Shown piece by piece: positions 24,501-29,262 of a stretch of DNA of 36,033 nucleotides. The DNA is from Desulforhopalus sp. (GTDB lineage: Bacteria; Desulfobacterota; Desulfobulbia; Desulfobulbales; Desulfocapsaceae): assembly GCA_024710585.1 (NCBI GenBank), contig JANJUM010000189.1:1-36033 (forward strand), in the 5' to 3' direction. The position numbers and the translations under genes were made by a program. The notes under the pieces were generated by a model. The model was not told the origin of the DNA. It searched no databases and saw only the letters and a program-made list of their open reading frames with translations. Each line of letters starts with the position of its first letter. Position 1 is the first letter of the stretch.

Positions 24501-24773
24501 CTAGCGGCGCACCAGGCGCAGGGTGACCTCGTAGCGGCCGCTGTCGAGGTCGGCGGGAAGAAGGGTGCCGTCGGGCACCATGATGGTCAGCACGCGGCCC
24601 TTGCGCGGGTCGCTGCCCTGCTTGGTGCGGCGCTCGCGTCCGGAAGGTCCGGCCACCCCCTTGCGCGGGGGACGCACGTGGAGCAACTGGGCATCGATAA
24701 AGACCGCCCCTTTCTGGGGCACTTTCTGGCCCTGCGGCTGCAGGGGCGGGATGGACCCGATGACGATTTCCAT
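24501..24773 (-). CDS. Small protein of unknown function
   Basis: This 90-residue protein is not one I recognise. It is supported as a gene by an excellent AAAGGAG 7 nt before the ATG and by the terminator just after its stop codon. It starts MEIVIGSIPPLQPQG, has a basic central region (RPPRKGV, RERRTKQGSDPRKG), and ends with alternating hydrophobic residues (RVLTIMVPDGTLL, RYEVTLRLVRR) that could form beta-strands. There is no signal peptide, transmembrane segment or cysteine. It is small and soluble-looking, and might be an RNA- or nucleoprotein-binding or phage-derived protein, but nothing here decides that. Its neighbours are the glutamate synthase genes (convergent) and the P-loop/phosphatase gene (divergent). 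Confidence 0.7.
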   Translation of the reverse strand: MEIVIGSIPPLQPQGQKVPQKGAVFIDAQLLHVRPPRKGVAGPSGRERRTKQGSDPRKGRVLTIMVPDGTLLPADLDSGRYEVTLRLVRR

Positions 24774-25065: not shown

Positions 25066-27150
25066 ATGATCGATCCCTTAAAAAAAATCCTCGAGCCAAT
25101 CAAGGAACTGCAGACCATCCGCGGCATCGACCTGCCCATTGGCCTGGAGTATCTGCAACTGGTGGTGACCGGTCCGCCGGGGGCCGGCAAGTCCTATTAC
25201 ATCGAACAGATCCGTGGCTGGCCCAATGAGGGCTACCTCGACCTCACCCAGAAAAACTGGTGGAAGAACCAGACGCTCATGTTCCGCCCCCGCGAAGTCC
25301 ATCTCGGCCTGCCCTTTCGCGGCTTCTCCGAGGCGCTGACCGTCTTCGACAAGGAATACCTGCGCTGTCAGCCTCCCCCGGAGATCGACTTCCAGCGCGT
25401 CAAGATCCCCCCGGAGAAGCGTTTCTTCTTCCAGACCGATTGGCGCCACCGCTATATCTTCGAGTTTCTCATCCCCAGCGCCGCCACCATCTACGAGCAG
25501 CGCCTGGCGCGCCAGGACCAGGGTTATTTCCCGGTGGACGACAACCTCAGCCTGGAGATGGTGCGGCAGCAGGTGGCGGTCTACCGCGAAATGGCCCTCT
25601 ACCTGCACCGCGCCGGGCTCAACGTCTACGTGCGCAAGGGCATCGACCACCCGCCGATGATTATTGTCGAGAAAGGCGTCGCCAGCGTGCCGCGCTGGTC
25701 CCTCGACAGCAGCCCGCAGCGCCCCAGCCTGCGCACTCGCGCCGGCTGGCGCTGGCTCCTTCGCCACCACTACCCCATTCGCTGGCTGACCCTCGACACC
25801 ACTCCGCAGACCCTGCGCGAGCCTGGGCGCATCGCCCACGACGGCAAGAGCTTCGAACTGCACCTCGGCAGCACCCAGCTGCGTTTTCAGCCGGAGATCC
25901 CCATCGGCGGCAAGAAGGGCCGCAGCACCAAGAACTGGGTCATCCAGAGCCACCGTGGCTGTTCGGAGACCACCATGGGCGGCTTCCTGCGCATCCGCGT
26001 CGGCGAGACCATCGTCATCGGCCGCAGTCACAAGGAGTTCCGCCAGCTCTTCCAGCTCTCCGCCGACGTCGCTGAACGCCATATCAGCATCACCAACCGC
26101 CGTGGCGACCTCATCCTCTCGCCCCTCGCCGGGAGCAGCGATATCAGGGTGCAGCGCCTCGACGACCTCGACTACCGCGAACAGGTGGCGCGCGGCCGCC
26201 ACAAGGCCCTGCTCGCTATCGGCCGCCTCTACGGAGGGCCATTCAAGCCACTGCCGACCGACAAGGCGCTGGCCACCATTCGCGCCGTCAACAGCCTGAT
26301 GGAGGACGAGGCCTATCGCCCGAGAAACCATCAAGGCTCCCCCGGCGGCCTGCTCGAACTACCGGTGGAGGCCATCCCGGTAATCGTCGGCGACCTCCAC
26401 GCCCAGGTCGACAACCTCCTCAAGATCCTCAGCGAGAACTGCCTGCTCGACTGCCTGCGCAGCAAGACAGCCCTGCTCCTCTTCCTCGGCGATGCGGTGC
26501 ACTCCGAACAGTTTCACGAGATGGCCAGATTCGACAGCTCGATGCTCATTATGGACCTCATCTTCAGGCTGAAGCTGTCCTTTCCCGACGCCGTCTTTTA
26601 CCTGCGCGGCAACCATGACAGCTTCGATGCCGAGATCTCCAAGAACGGGGTGCTCCAGGGCGTCCTATGGCGGGAGGCGCTGCTCGGTCAGCGCGGCGCC
26701 GCCTATGTCGAGGAAATGCAAAGGTTCTACGACCTCCTCCCCTACGTCGCCGTCTCCGAGAATTTCATCGCCTGCCATGCCGGGCCGCCGCGCGAGGAAA
26801 TCAGCCGCGAGGACCTCATCAACCTCGCCGGCCACCCGGAGCTGGCGGCGGAACTGGTCAGCACGCGCATGAAGCGCCCGCACTTCCTCGCCGGGTACGG
26901 CAAAGGCGATGTCAAGCGGCTGCGTCGCTCGCTGCACCTCACTCCCAAGGCGCGGCTCATTGTCGGTCACACCCCCCTCGACCCCTTCGGCAGTTTCTGG
27001 CTGCACGCCGGGTCGATCAAGAACCACCATATCATCTACAGCGCCCACAATGACGGGCCAAGCGTCATCATCCGCACCGGCGATACCTTCAACCCCATTT
27101 CCTATCCTGCCGAGCCGCTCGGCGAGATCATCGGCGAACTGCTCGACTGA
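25066..27150 (+). CDS. P-loop NTPase / FHA-like / PPP-type metallophosphatase fusion protein
   Basis: This 694-residue protein has three parts. Residues 25-200 hold a P-loop NTPase/kinase-like domain with Walker A GPPGAGKS (36-43). Residues 300-370 look like an FHA-type phosphothreonine-binding fold: ETIVIGRS, then a spaced ERHISI (337-342) and GDLILSPLAGSSDIRV, though the Asn-Gly turn of a classical FHA domain is missing. Residues 435-690 form a PPP-family metallophosphatase with GDLHA (442-446), GDAVH (475-479), GNHD (515-518), CHAG (His571) and GHTP (634-637); the usual Arg after GDxVD is absent. Substrate and role are not known; reversible phosphorylation or RNA end repair are possible. 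The ATG has a weak Shine-Dalgarno. The DUF47 gene follows after 144 bp. The domains are confident except the FHA-like one. Confidence 0.8.
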   Translation: MIDPLKKILEPIKELQTIRGIDLPIGLEYLQLVVTGPPGAGKSYYIEQIRGWPNEGYLDLTQKNWWKNQTLMFRPREVHLGLPFRGFSEALTVFDKEYLRCQPPPEIDFQRVKIPPEKRFFFQTDWRHRYIFEFLIPSAATIYEQRLARQDQGYFPVDDNLSLEMVRQQVAVYREMALYLHRAGLNVYVRKGIDHPPMIIVEKGVASVPRWSLDSSPQRPSLRTRAGWRWLLRHHYPIRWLTLDTTPQTLREPGRIAHDGKSFELHLGSTQLRFQPEIPIGGKKGRSTKNWVIQSHRGCSETTMGGFLRIRVGETIVIGRSHKEFRQLFQLSADVAERHISITNRRGDLILSPLAGSSDIRVQRLDDLDYREQVARGRHKALLAIGRLYGGPFKPLPTDKALATIRAVNSLMEDEAYRPRNHQGSPGGLLELPVEAIPVIVGDLHAQVDNLLKILSENCLLDCLRSKTALLLFLGDAVHSEQFHEMARFDSSMLIMDLIFRLKLSFPDAVFYLRGNHDSFDAEISKNGVLQGVLWREALLGQRGAAYVEEMQRFYDLLPYVAVSENFIACHAGPPREEISREDLINLAGHPELAAELVSTRMKRPHFLAGYGKGDVKRLRRSLHLTPKARLIVGHTPLDPFGSFWLHAGSIKNHHIIYSAHNDGPSVIIRTGDTFNPISYPAEPLGEIIGELLD

Positions 27151-27294: not shown

Positions 27295-27981
27295 ATGCCC
27301 CTTCGCTCGCCTCGACCCCTTTCCGGACTGTTCCGCGGTTCCCCCTTCAAGCCCATCCAGGAACACATGCGGGTGGTGTTCTCCTGCATCTGCCATATCC
27401 CGCCGCTGTTCGACGCCGTCTACCGCGAGGACAGGGCGCAGCTGGTCGACTTCGCCACACAGATCAAGGAGACCGAGACCGCCGCCGACAAGCTCAAGTC
27501 CACCTTCCGCCTCAACATGCCCAAATCGCTGTTTCTGCCGGTGGACCGCAAGGACCTGCTCAGCCTCATCGGCGATCAGGACAAGATCGCCGACACCACC
27601 GAGGACATCGCCAAGATCTTCCTCTTCCGCGACATGGTGGTGCCGGAAGGCATCAAGGAGCTGCTCGACGAACTGCTCGAGGGAACCATGGAGATCAGCG
27701 CCTCGGCGCGCGACATGATCGAGCAGCTCGACGAGTTGCTCGAGGTCGGCTTCGTCGGCCGTGAACTCGACAAGGTCAACGTCATGATCGCCGGCGTGCG
27801 CCGCAGCGAGCACAACATTGACGACATCGTCCACCGCCTGCGCGCCCGCCTTTTCGCCATCGAAAAGGAGCTCAACCCGGTGGACGCCATATTCTGGTAC
27901 AGAATCATCGACCTCGTCGGTCAGATCTCCGACCAGGCGGAAAACCTCGCCGACCGCCTGCTCCTCTTCCTTTCCAAATAA
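27295..27981 (+). CDS. DUF47 (PhoU-like) phosphate transport regulator
   Basis: The 228-residue protein is a DUF47/TIGR00153-type PhoU-like helical-bundle protein, which is usually encoded beside a Pit transporter, as here. Visible features are an acidic-basic helical body, HMRVVFSCICHIPPLFDAV, ETAADKLKSTFRLNMPKSLFLPVDRKDLLSLI, a DQDKIADTTEDIAK metal-type segment, and the C-terminal DLVGQISDQAENLADRLL. Members are thought to adjust PiT activity or bind divalent metal; the exact role is not settled. AGGAG lies 7 nt before the ATG. The pit gene begins 15 bp after the stop, so the two form an operon. Confidence 0.93.
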   Translation: MPLRSPRPLSGLFRGSPFKPIQEHMRVVFSCICHIPPLFDAVYREDRAQLVDFATQIKETETAADKLKSTFRLNMPKSLFLPVDRKDLLSLIGDQDKIADTTEDIAKIFLFRDMVVPEGIKELLDELLEGTMEISASARDMIEQLDELLEVGFVGRELDKVNVMIAGVRRSEHNIDDIVHRLRARLFAIEKELNPVDAIFWYRIIDLVGQISDQAENLADRLLLFLSK

Positions 27982-27996
27982 CCAAGGGGAATCTCG

Positions 27997-29262
27997 ATGG
28001 AAATTATCGCATCCTACGGCACCGTGTTCCTCGTCCTGGCGATCATCTTCGGCCTCTACATGACCTGGGGGGTGGGGGCCAACGACCTCGCCAACGCCAT
28101 GGGCACCTCGGTGGGAGCCGGCGCGGTCACCATGAAGCAGGCCATCTGCATCGCCATGATCTTCGAGTTCCTCGGCGCGGTGCTCGCCGGCGGCCATGTC
28201 ACCGAGACCATCAGGAAGGGCATCATCGACCCGACGCCGATCATCGACCGCCCCGAGGTGCTCGTCTACGGCATGCTCGCCGCCCTGCTCGCCTCGGCCA
28301 TCTGGCTGATGATCGCCTCCGCCAAGGGCTGGCCGGTCTCAACCACCCACTCCATCATCGGCGCCCTGGTGGGTTTCGCCGTCGTCGGCATCGGCCCGGA
28401 GGCGGTCAAGTGGCAAAGCCTGATCACGGTGGTAATGAGCTGGATCGTCTCGCCATTGGTGGGCGGCACCATCTCCTTTCTCCTCGTCATCTCCACCCGC
28501 AAGCTGATCTTCGATACCGCCAACCCCCTGCAGAACGCCAAGCGCTACGCCCCGGCCTATATCTTCCTCGTCGGCTTCACCATTTCCCTGGTCACCCTGT
28601 TCAAGGGGCTCGAGCATCTCCACCTCGAGCTCAACGCCCTGCAGAGCTTCGCCGCCGCCACCATGGTCGGTCTGCTCACCGCCCTCATCGGCTGGTCGCT
28701 GATCCGCAAGGTCAAGGACGACCCCGGCGCCAATCGCACTTTCGCCTTCGCCAGCGTCGAGAAGGTGTTCACGCCGATGATGCTCTTCACCGCCTGTTCC
28801 ATGGCCTTCGCCCACGGCTCCAACGACGTCGCCAACGGCATCGGCCCGCTGGCCGCCGTGTTCAGCATCGTCTCCTCTGGCGGCGAAGTGATGCAGAAGT
28901 CGGCCATCCCCCTGTGGATCCTGCTGCTTGGCGGCTTCGGCATCGTCCTCGGCCTGGTCACCCTCGGCTTCCAGGTCATGCAGACCATCGGCAAGCGCAT
29001 CACCGAGCTGACCCCCTCGCGCGGCTTCTGCGCCGAGCTGGCGGCGGCGATCACCGTGGTCATCGCCTCACGCACCGGCCTGCCCATTTCCACCACCCAC
29101 GTCCTCGTCGGAGCGGTGCTCGGCGTCGGCCTGGCCCGCGGCATCGGCGCGCTCGACCTGCGGGTGGTGCTCAATATCGTCATTTCCTGGGTGGTGACCC
29201 TGCCGGCCGGGGCGATCATGGCGATGTTCTTCTTCTTCACCCTCAAGGGCATCTTCGGCTGA
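27997..29262 (+). CDS. pit: PiT-family inorganic phosphate transporter
   Basis: PiT proteins take up phosphate, commonly as a metal-phosphate complex, coupled to H+ or Na+. The 421-residue protein has about ten hydrophobic segments and the two inverted-repeat signatures: GVGANDLANAMGTSVGAGAVT (near residue 26) and FAHGSNDVANGIGPLAAV (near 268). The helix with STTHSIIGALVGF and its counterpart STTHVLVGAVLG also mark the family. AAGGGG lies 7 nt before the ATG. It follows the DUF47 gene by 15 bp. The symbol pit is by family; the ion used and regulation are not shown by sequence. A GC-rich hairpin follows the stop. Confidence 0.94.
   Translation: MEIIASYGTVFLVLAIIFGLYMTWGVGANDLANAMGTSVGAGAVTMKQAICIAMIFEFLGAVLAGGHVTETIRKGIIDPTPIIDRPEVLVYGMLAALLASAIWLMIASAKGWPVSTTHSIIGALVGFAVVGIGPEAVKWQSLITVVMSWIVSPLVGGTISFLLVISTRKLIFDTANPLQNAKRYAPAYIFLVGFTISLVTLFKGLEHLHLELNALQSFAAATMVGLLTALIGWSLIRKVKDDPGANRTFAFASVEKVFTPMMLFTACSMAFAHGSNDVANGIGPLAAVFSIVSSGGEVMQKSAIPLWILLLGGFGIVLGLVTLGFQVMQTIGKRITELTPSRGFCAELAAAITVVIASRTGLPISTTHVLVGAVLGVGLARGIGALDLRVVLNIVISWVVTLPAGAIMAMFFFFTLKGIFG

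What the first reader, a model, noticed from the sequence alone, without database searches (positions are those of the whole stretch)
25066..27150. Single protein joining a P-loop domain, an FHA-like module and a PPP phosphatase
Seen: Walker A at residues 36-43, an FHA-like GR...ERHISI segment at about 318-365, and all major PPP metallophosphatase motifs (GDLHA, GDAVH, GNHD, CHAG, GHTP) at 442-637. Known: bacterial Pnkp has a P-loop kinase and PPP phosphatase but a ligase domain in place of FHA; eukaryotic PNKP has FHA plus a HAD-type phosphatase. Inference: this is a different arrangement that could be an RNA/DNA end-healing enzyme or a self-contained phospho-signalling switch (nucleotide binding, phosphothreonine recognition, dephosphorylation). 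It sits beside phosphate-uptake genes, which may be chance. The Arg missing after GDxVD and the unusual FHA turn suggest a divergent family.
Basis: partly seen in the sequence, partly recalled or inferred. Interest (0 to 1): 0.75.

Follow-up and report, generated by a model that had tools for sequence, protein, structure and literature searches.

The report
Kinase-phosphatase partner of phosphate transporters
This bacterial gene makes one protein that joins a kinase-like domain, an FHA-like domain and a phosphatase of the kind best known from animals and plants, and in several bacterial groups it sits beside phosphate transporters and their PhoU-like controllers, so it is probably an undescribed switch for phosphate uptake.

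Summary
Window 25066-27150 (+) encodes 694 aa: a P-loop kinase-like domain, an FHA-like domain and a PPP phosphatase domain. PPP is firm (Z 26 to human PP5). FHA homology is supported by profile comparison, but the phosphothreonine-binding Ser is Ala or Gly in most relatives. The kinase fold is likely, with only moderate structural scores.

Relatives found by kinase motif alone lie within 1.5 kb of the phosphate transporter Pit and/or its PhoU-like partner DUF47 in 68 of 79 loci; 8 of the rest have a contig end close by. Gene order differs between lineages. In Chromatiaceae and other Proteobacteria, kinase and FHA-PPP are separate adjacent genes, mostly DUF47-Pit-kinase-FHA-PPP. FHA-PPP also flanks an unrelated Na/Pi cotransporter (23 of 67 loci), shown once to carry a PhoU domain.

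Best reading: an accessory kinase/phosphatase that switches phosphate transport by reversible phosphorylation, probably through the PhoU-like partner. The link to phosphate transport is strong; substrate and activity are inferred. Nucleic-acid end healing is not supported. Against: two same-genus genomes keep the gene beside no Pit, and seven Chromatiaceae-family genomes lack a findable kinase. Nine open-access paper searches found no description.

The parts
25066..27150 (+). Whole gene: P-loop kinase-like / FHA-like / PPP phosphatase fusion, 694 aa
   Evidence: ORF; 27 relatives aligned with it over (nearly) full length
25147..25659 (+). P-loop kinase-like domain, residues 28-198 (Walker A at 25171-25194)
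   Evidence: VIA-align Z 8.3 to YorR, 7.8 to adenylate kinase, 7.3 to C. thermocellum polynucleotide kinase; Walker A, D59, R74, R76, R146, R149, D158, R190 invariant and E133 nearly so in 33 rows
25792..26199 (+). FHA-like domain, residues 243-378
   Evidence: pocket Ser mostly absent
26209..27129 (+). PPP-type phosphatase domain, residues 382-688
   Evidence: VIA-align Z 26.1 to PP5, 264 residues, rmsd 2.9; D443, H445, D476, N516, H517, H571, H635 kept in 120 of 126 rows, 5 degenerate, 1 truncated
27295..27981 (+). PhoU_div/DUF47 accessory protein, 228 aa, the only DUF47 found in the genome
   Evidence: PF01865 4.6e-50; single genome match
27997..29262 (+). Pit (PHO4) phosphate transporter, 421 aa, the only Pit found in the genome; GANDLAN and GSNDVAN signatures intact
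   Evidence: PF01384 4.4e-120; single genome match; alignment

Best explanation
The protein is a dedicated accessory of phosphate transporters. Its N-terminal P-loop kinase adds, and its C-terminal PPP phosphatase removes, a phosphate on a shared target, the FHA-like domain positioning phosphatase and target. The most likely target is the PhoU-like protein that controls the neighbouring transporter (DUF47 beside Pit, or the PhoU domain carried by the NPT-type Na/Pi cotransporter), so that phosphate flux or phosphate-starvation signalling is set by the modification state. Shown here by computation: the PPP domain with intact ligands, an FHA-like domain, a P-loop domain with conserved charged residues, one fused protein or two adjacent genes, and repeated linkage to two unrelated Pi transporters. 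Inferred: that the P-loop domain is a kinase, catalytic activity of either domain, opposition on one substrate, the identity of the substrate, and the direction of control.
For: Linkage: 36 of 42 genomes of the GTDB family with the gene have DUF47 downstream on the same strand, 81-694 bp away. In the kinase-motif scan of public genomes (80 loci kept of 89, plus the window) 79 loci have kinase and PPP; 68 have DUF47 or Pit within 1.5 kb, 8 have a contig end within 1.5 kb and show none, 3 are not adjacent. Order differs: fused gene-DUF47-Pit (Desulfobulbales, Gemmatimonadetes L119), DUF47-Pit-kinase-FHA-PPP (Thiohalocapsa, Chromatiaceae), convergent in Alphaproteobacteria (L110, L112, L113). Further sample: of 9 strong kinase places in other genomes (8 in 7 gammaproteobacteria, 1 in the phylum of L104) 8 lie within 1.5 kb of Pit or DUF47. 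Co-occurrence in the family: DUF47 of the linked type (>=150 bits) in 37 of 42 genomes with the gene and 0 of 15 without, Fisher 7e-10, not corrected for phylogeny, 3 genomes with fragments left out; Pit of the linked type (>=385 bits) in 22 of 26 with and 0 of 8 without, among the 36 family genomes searched for Pit (2 with fragments left out). In a list of 312 gammaproteobacterial genomes the 7 strong-kinase genomes that appear are all among the 12 with the Pit most like the window's (>=67% identity). Second transporter: Na_Pi_cotrans+PhoU next to FHA-PPP in L201; matches to it within 1.5 kb of FHA-PPP in 23 of 67 loci, 6 of them without Pit there. PPP is of the PP1/PP5 type.
Against: G004 and G007, same genus, keep the gene but have no DUF47/Pit beside it; in G004 a Fic gene and an AbiU2-like gene stand there. 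G012 and G014 carry DUF47 on another contig; L043, which has G012's contig length and coordinates, has 7.8 kb downstream without Pit although one search counts it as contig end. L118 has DUF47-Pit only 5.3 kb away. Five of the 12 closest Pits in the gammaproteobacterial sample have no kinase or FHA-PPP near, so the transporter does not need the module. In seven Chromatiaceae-family genomes an intact FHA-PPP has no kinase that I could find. The NPT neighbours of L201, L203 and L205 stand beside FHA-PPP proteins with lost metal ligands. Five of seven solo kinases outside the linked clusters with enough flank lie away from Pit or are paralogues with GAF. mutL also recurs nearby (24 of 81 loci). 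The FHA pocket Ser is mostly lost and the PPP phosphate-binding Arg is missing. P-loop kinases usually act on small molecules (recalled). Co-transfer of one gene block could explain part of the cross-phylum linkage.
Confidence: 0.45

Rival explanations
1. The kinase makes and the PPP domain destroys a small phosphorylated messenger that in turn binds the PhoU-like partner or the transporter, like 6-phosphofructo-2-kinase/fructose-2,6-bisphosphatase or the inositol-pyrophosphate kinase/phosphatases of eukaryotes (both recalled).
For: Nearest structural neighbours of the kinase domain are kinases of nucleotides, nucleosides, nucleic acid or shikimate. Same linkage evidence as the best reading. 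The FHA pocket is degenerate.
Against: The phosphatase is of the PP1/PP5 protein-phosphatase type and carries an FHA-like region in the 31 loci aligned for it. FHA-PPP occurs without a findable kinase beside Pit (L321, L173, L216) or NPT (L322, L323).
Confidence: 0.25
2. It is a phosphate-economy enzyme (polyphosphate, nucleotide or phosphorylated-metabolite turnover) encoded next to transporters because it feeds or drains the phosphate pool, not because it signals.
For: Pit, DUF47 and NPT neighbours; a CHAD-domain gene (polyphosphate association recalled) lies within 3 kb of FHA-PPP in 5 of 145 loci.
Against: A combined kinase and phosphatase is a poor design for bulk turnover (inference); CHAD linkage is rare.
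Confidence: 0.12
3. Genomic passenger: the gene block travels together but the protein has another function.
For: Gammaproteobacterial genomes with the kinase also carry the Pits closest to the window's, as expected of co-transfer; G004 and G007 keep the gene without Pit beside it.
Against: Gene order and strand differ between lineages, FHA-PPP also stands beside an unrelated phosphate transporter, in six loci without Pit there, and in Desulfobulbales the other flank varies while DUF47-Pit stays.
Confidence: 0.1
4. Nucleic-acid end-healing enzyme related to bacterial Pnkp.
For: Same order kinase then PPP (Pnkp layout recalled); C. thermocellum polynucleotide kinase is among the structural neighbours (Z 7.3, tied with many other kinases). 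mutL and priA lie in the window and mutL stands within four ORFs of the gene in 24 of 81 loci.
Against: No ligase domain, no RNA-repair gene among 20 neighbouring ORFs scanned, phosphate-transport linkage also where mutL is not near, PP1/PP5-like phosphatase.
Confidence: 0.04

Closest known systems
PPP-family protein phosphatases (PP1, PP5, PPZ1, plant BSU1)
   Same: Fold over residues 382-688 (Z 25-26), D/H/D/N/H/H ligands; BSU1 and PPZ1 are the best sequence matches in the PDB
   Different: Ser480 for the phosphate-binding Arg of GDxVDRG (recalled motif), His479 for Asp; fused to kinase-like and FHA-like domains; bacterial
Bacterial Pnkp (C. thermocellum)
   Same: P-loop kinase domain followed by PPP domain (Pnkp layout recalled)
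   Different: FHA-like domain between them, no ligase, phosphate-transporter neighbourhood
PitR and PhoU accessory regulators (PMC13170248, passages read)
   Same: Tied to a particular Pi transporter; that paper links PitR with Pit and the PhoU domain with NptA. That PitR is DUF47/PhoU_div is my inference: the paper does not use the word DUF47
   Different: These are non-enzymatic helical regulators (recalled); the protein here would be an extra enzymatic layer. In the passages shown, 'kinase' and 'phosphatase' appear only for PhoR conformations
FHA-domain proteins (TB39.8/FhaA of M. tuberculosis)
   Same: Profile similarity over the GR...SxxH half
   Different: SxxH Ser mostly Ala or Gly
Bifunctional kinase/phosphatases such as PFKFB (recalled)
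   Same: P-loop kinase and phosphatase in one chain
   Different: Phosphatase of a different superfamily; substrate unknown here

Membership tests
PPP phosphatases | PPP fold | tested here: met
   Z 26.1, 264 residues, rmsd 2.9 to PP5; PF00149 38.2 bits over a cut-off of 21.5
PPP phosphatases | Metal ligands D, H, D, N, H, H and catalytic His | tested here: met
   D443 H445 D476 N516 H517 H571 H635
PPP phosphatases | Arg of GDxVDRG (motif recalled) | tested here: not met
   S480 here; Ser in 60 of 72 rows with a residue, Arg in 3
FHA domains | Sequence-profile homology | tested here: met
   hhalign 92.6, P 4.7e-7, control 0.1; PDB profile hits mostly FHA, best E 0.011, most names from recall. 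Pfam FHA not reached by the single sequence nor by the ten distant members scanned
FHA domains | Phosphothreonine pocket (Arg of GR and Ser of SxxH, recalled) | tested here: not met
   Arg in 60 of 74 rows, Ser in 10 of 74
P-loop (nucleotide-kinase-type) kinases | Walker A and Arg-bearing lid region | tested here: met
   GPPGxGK[ST], R146 and R149 invariant in 33 rows; that they form the lid is inferred
P-loop (nucleotide-kinase-type) kinases | Kinase fold | tested here: inconclusive
   Foldseek best E 0.012, prob 0.95; VIA Z 8.3 at best; no Pfam kinase above its cut-off
Bacterial Pnkp | C-terminal ligase domain (recalled) | tested here: not met
   Protein ends after PPP; no Pfam hit other than Metallophos and weak P-loop
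Bacterial Pnkp | End-healing activity | not testable with these tools
   needs assay
Pi-transporter accessory proteins | Conserved gene linkage to a Pi transporter | tested here: met
   exceptions G004, G007, G012, G014
Pi-transporter accessory proteins | Effect on phosphate transport or Pho signalling | not testable with these tools
   needs a mutant

The most novel reading that the evidence does not exclude
A previously undescribed bacterial phosphate-control system: a paired P-loop kinase and eukaryote-type PPP phosphatase with an FHA-like domain, fused or as two genes, that reversibly phosphorylates the PhoU-like partners of two unrelated phosphate transporters (Pit with DUF47, and NPT with its PhoU domain).
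Probability: 0.35. Interest if true: 0.75.

Novelty: new variant of a known kind. Interest (0 to 1): 0.6.

Why it matters
How Pit-type transporters are switched is poorly known (recalled); a 2026 paper ties PitR to Pit and to phosphate signalling (PMC13170248, passages). An enzymatic kinase/phosphatase attached to PhoU-like partners of two transporter classes would add a post-translational layer to phosphate control in sulfate reducers, cable bacteria (Ca. Electrothrix) and purple sulfur bacteria, which matter for sediment phosphorus. It also turns an open question (how are DUF47 and PhoU-domain proteins set?) into an assay: mix kinase, FHA-PPP and partner with labelled ATP.

Tried and rejected
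Viral contigs: no relative. Plasmids: none. NCBIfam: no family. Rfam at gathering scores and tRNA scan of the window: nothing.

I looked for linked-type-specific Ser/Thr in DUF47 and Pit as possible phosphorylation sites (107 linked vs 17 unlinked DUF47, 110 vs 14 Pit). The two sets are distinct subfamilies, differing at many positions of all kinds, so the few Ser/Thr differences point to no site. A suspected loss of the Pit signature Asp was wrong: the GANDxAN and [GS][SA]NDVAN signatures are there in the rows printed.

Idea that the phosphatase decays when the kinase is lost: five genomes in which no kinase was found (G527, G411, G490, G459, G511) have FHA-PPP without metal ligands, while all 48 untruncated loci with a kinase in the locus or elsewhere in the genome are intact (two truncated ones left out); but 9 loci in 7 genomes without a findable kinase are intact too, and the five may be one clade, so this is a hint only.

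An automatic ORF choice missed DUF47 in several loci because of long antisense ORFs; linkage counts therefore come from tblastn. One search picked a wrong-frame ORF for L201; corrected, still degenerate. Of 133 FHA-PPP features 8 gave no ORF over 300 aa and were left out, and its 126 rows hold the window protein twice. labels the side of L061, L073, L192 and L198 wrongly because hit ends overlap; adjacency is unaffected. In some searches only 8 or 15 candidates per genome were scored, so kinases can have been missed. The fold comparisons list mostly one domain each; that a family is absent from them is not counted against it.

A paper sharing the words metallophosphoesterase and Pit (PMC6620896, passages) proved unrelated.

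Not in print: based only on nine searches of open-access full text, of which I saw listings and, for three papers, passages.
Full report
The gene. One copy was found in the genome. In the relatives sample, 42 of 60 genomes of its GTDB family have the gene (nearly) full length, two of these cut by contig ends (G029, G041), and three more have fragments; 0 of 37 genomes of other families of the order have a match (counted). A sample of 297 genomes of the phylum gave, besides the window's own genome, 11 genomes with weak matches to the phosphatase part only.

Domains. The PPP domain is firm: residues 382-688 match PP5 at Z 26.1 (264 residues, rmsd 2.9) and PP1 and PPZ1 at about 25, and a family profile matches BSU1, PPZ1 and PP1 in the PDB. 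D443, H445, D476, N516, H517, H571 and H635 are kept in 120 of 126 rows; 5 rows are degenerate and one is truncated (8 short features left out). The Arg of GDxVDRG is missing (Ser480) and the second Asp is His479 (motif recalled). The FHA-like domain (243-378) is supported by profile-profile comparison against 28 FHA domains of related genomes (probability 92.6, P 4.7e-7; control 0.1) and by PDB profile hits: of 9 with E up to 10, one is named FHA in the listing, six are FHA proteins by recall (best E 0.011), one I cannot place and one is not FHA. No Pfam FHA hit was obtained for the window protein or ten distant members or pieces scanned to E 1. Its SxxH Ser is Ser in only 10 of 74 rows, while the GR Arg is kept in 60 of 74, so phosphothreonine binding is doubtful. 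The N-terminal domain (28-198) has an invariant Walker A and several invariant charged residues; structure comparison places it among nucleotide-kinase-type folds, with moderate scores (Foldseek E 0.012, probability 0.95; VIA Z 8.3 at best). Models: full protein mean pLDDT 76; residues 1-432 mean pLDDT 81.

Fusion and fission. In nearly all Desulfobulbales loci the three domains are one protein; L101 and L108 read as two ORFs there, by true splitting or frame errors. In Gammaproteobacteria such as Thiohalocapsa and Ca. Thiosymbion, and in Alphaproteobacteria L110, L112 and L113, the kinase (205-249 aa) and FHA-PPP (470-501 aa) are adjacent separate genes. Fused forms also occur in Thermoanaerobaculia L104, Gemmatimonadetes L119, Rhodospirillaceae L118 and the unassigned bacterium L107. 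This suggests that the two act together.

Linkage to phosphate transport. Window neighbours downstream are DUF47/PhoU_div and Pit, the only such genes found in the genome (assembly about 96% complete); a PstB is present elsewhere. A consensus scan shows no terminator-like site between the gene and DUF47 on the + strand. In 36 of 42 family genomes DUF47 follows on the same strand within 700 bp. Of 81 loci examined from the motif scan (80 plus the window), 79 have kinase and PPP; 68 of these have DUF47 or Pit within 1.5 kb, 8 show none but have a contig end within 1.5 kb, 3 are not adjacent (L045, L095, and L118 at 5.3 kb). One of the 8, L043, has 7.8 kb downstream without Pit, and L104 is cut upstream only. 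Many of these are the same genomes as, so the two counts are not independent. In Desulfobulbales the upstream flank varies (GltB-like, MutL or other genes) while DUF47-Pit stays; mutL is within four ORFs in 24 of 81 loci. In the family of Thiohalocapsa, 60 of 146 genomes have matches. From 50 of these I fetched 60 regions. In the 41 with kinase and PPP the two lie side by side, at most 306 bp apart by hit ends; 39 have Pit adjacent and the other 2 have contig ends close by. Of 7 regions with kinase alone, 1 is beside Pit; of 12 with PPP alone, 2 are. In a wider sample (369 gammaproteobacterial and 199 genomes of the phylum of L104), of 9 strong kinase places in genomes not examined before, 8 have Pit or DUF47 within 1.5 kb; L270 is the exception.

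Asymmetry. Of 312 gammaproteobacterial genomes, 182 have some Pit match and 12 have one at least 67% identical to the window's. Nine genomes have a strong kinase hit; the seven that appear in the Pit list are all among these 12, and the other two (G395, G874) do not appear in it. The remaining 5 of the 12 carry DUF47-Pit without the module in the regions fetched. So the module goes with this Pit type, but this Pit type does not need the module.

A second transporter. The gene after the solo FHA-PPP of L201 encodes an NPT-type Na/Pi cotransporter with a PhoU domain and overlaps it by 4 bp; L203 and L205 have the same neighbour. These three FHA-PPP proteins have lost their metal ligands. A search with the L201 transporter finds matches within 1.5 kb of FHA-PPP in 23 of 67 Chromatiaceae/gammaproteobacterial loci, against 2 of 78 in the mainly Desulfobulbales set. 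In six of the 23 (L201, L203, L205, L322, L323, L327) no Pit stands there, and in the last three the ligands are intact. Some matches score low (about 70-170 bits) and may be another NPT subtype; their PhoU domains were not checked. Linkage to two unrelated transporters that share a PhoU-like partner is, to me, the strongest hint to the target. A 2026 paper ties PitR to Pit and the PhoU domain to NptA (PMC13170248, passages read); that PitR corresponds to DUF47 is my inference. A cable-bacteria paper reports Pit as otherwise exclusive to Ca. Electrothrix (PMC12093952, passages); the motif scan found the gene in three Electrothrix records and lists no Electronema (capped at 80 of 89), which agrees but is not a test.

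Mechanism. The best-supported account is an accessory kinase/phosphatase controlling Pi transport or Pi signalling through the PhoU-like partner. My own estimate is about 0.9 that the function concerns phosphate transport, about 0.45 for the full account, and lower for any given substrate. A small-molecule messenger is the main rival. Results against: G004 and G007 keep the gene without DUF47-Pit beside it; G012 and G014 have DUF47 on another contig; seven Chromatiaceae-family genomes have an intact FHA-PPP and no kinase that I found, one of them (G424) with only a stop-ridden weak match upstream.

Novelty. Each domain type is known; the combination, the split/fused pairing and the linkage to two transporter classes were not found in nine searches of open-access text. 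I file it as a new variant of a known kind.

Noticed in passing
window 24501-24773 (-): Small ORF of 90 aa upstream and antisense, grouped with ORFs of 16 other loci; an 8-sequence DNA alignment looks protein-coding by eye; function not determined.
   Followed up: partly
L201-L205: FHA-PPP proteins with lost metal ligands (GDLRA, GSAVH), probably pseudophosphatases, in genomes where no kinase was found.
   Followed up: partly
L206-L211, L122: Solo relatives of the kinase; L122 and L207 carry a GAF domain. Away from Pit where the flank allows a judgement; L207 lies near multihaem cytochrome genes, L122 near SbcCD-like genes.
   Followed up: partly
L217 5193-6119; also near L212, L104, L322, L327: CHAD-domain gene or matches to it within 3 kb of FHA-PPP in 5 of 145 loci, a possible polyphosphate link.
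   Followed up: partly
L277 10236-12232: In G004 a Fic-family gene, a gene without Pfam match and a HEPN_AbiU2 gene stand between the gene and the PBP gene, where relatives have DUF47-Pit.
   Followed up: partly
L201 4172-5587, L202, L203, L205, L180, L187 and others: A HAMP-domain protein gene recurs upstream, usually divergent, of these phosphate clusters in Chromatiaceae.
   Followed up: no
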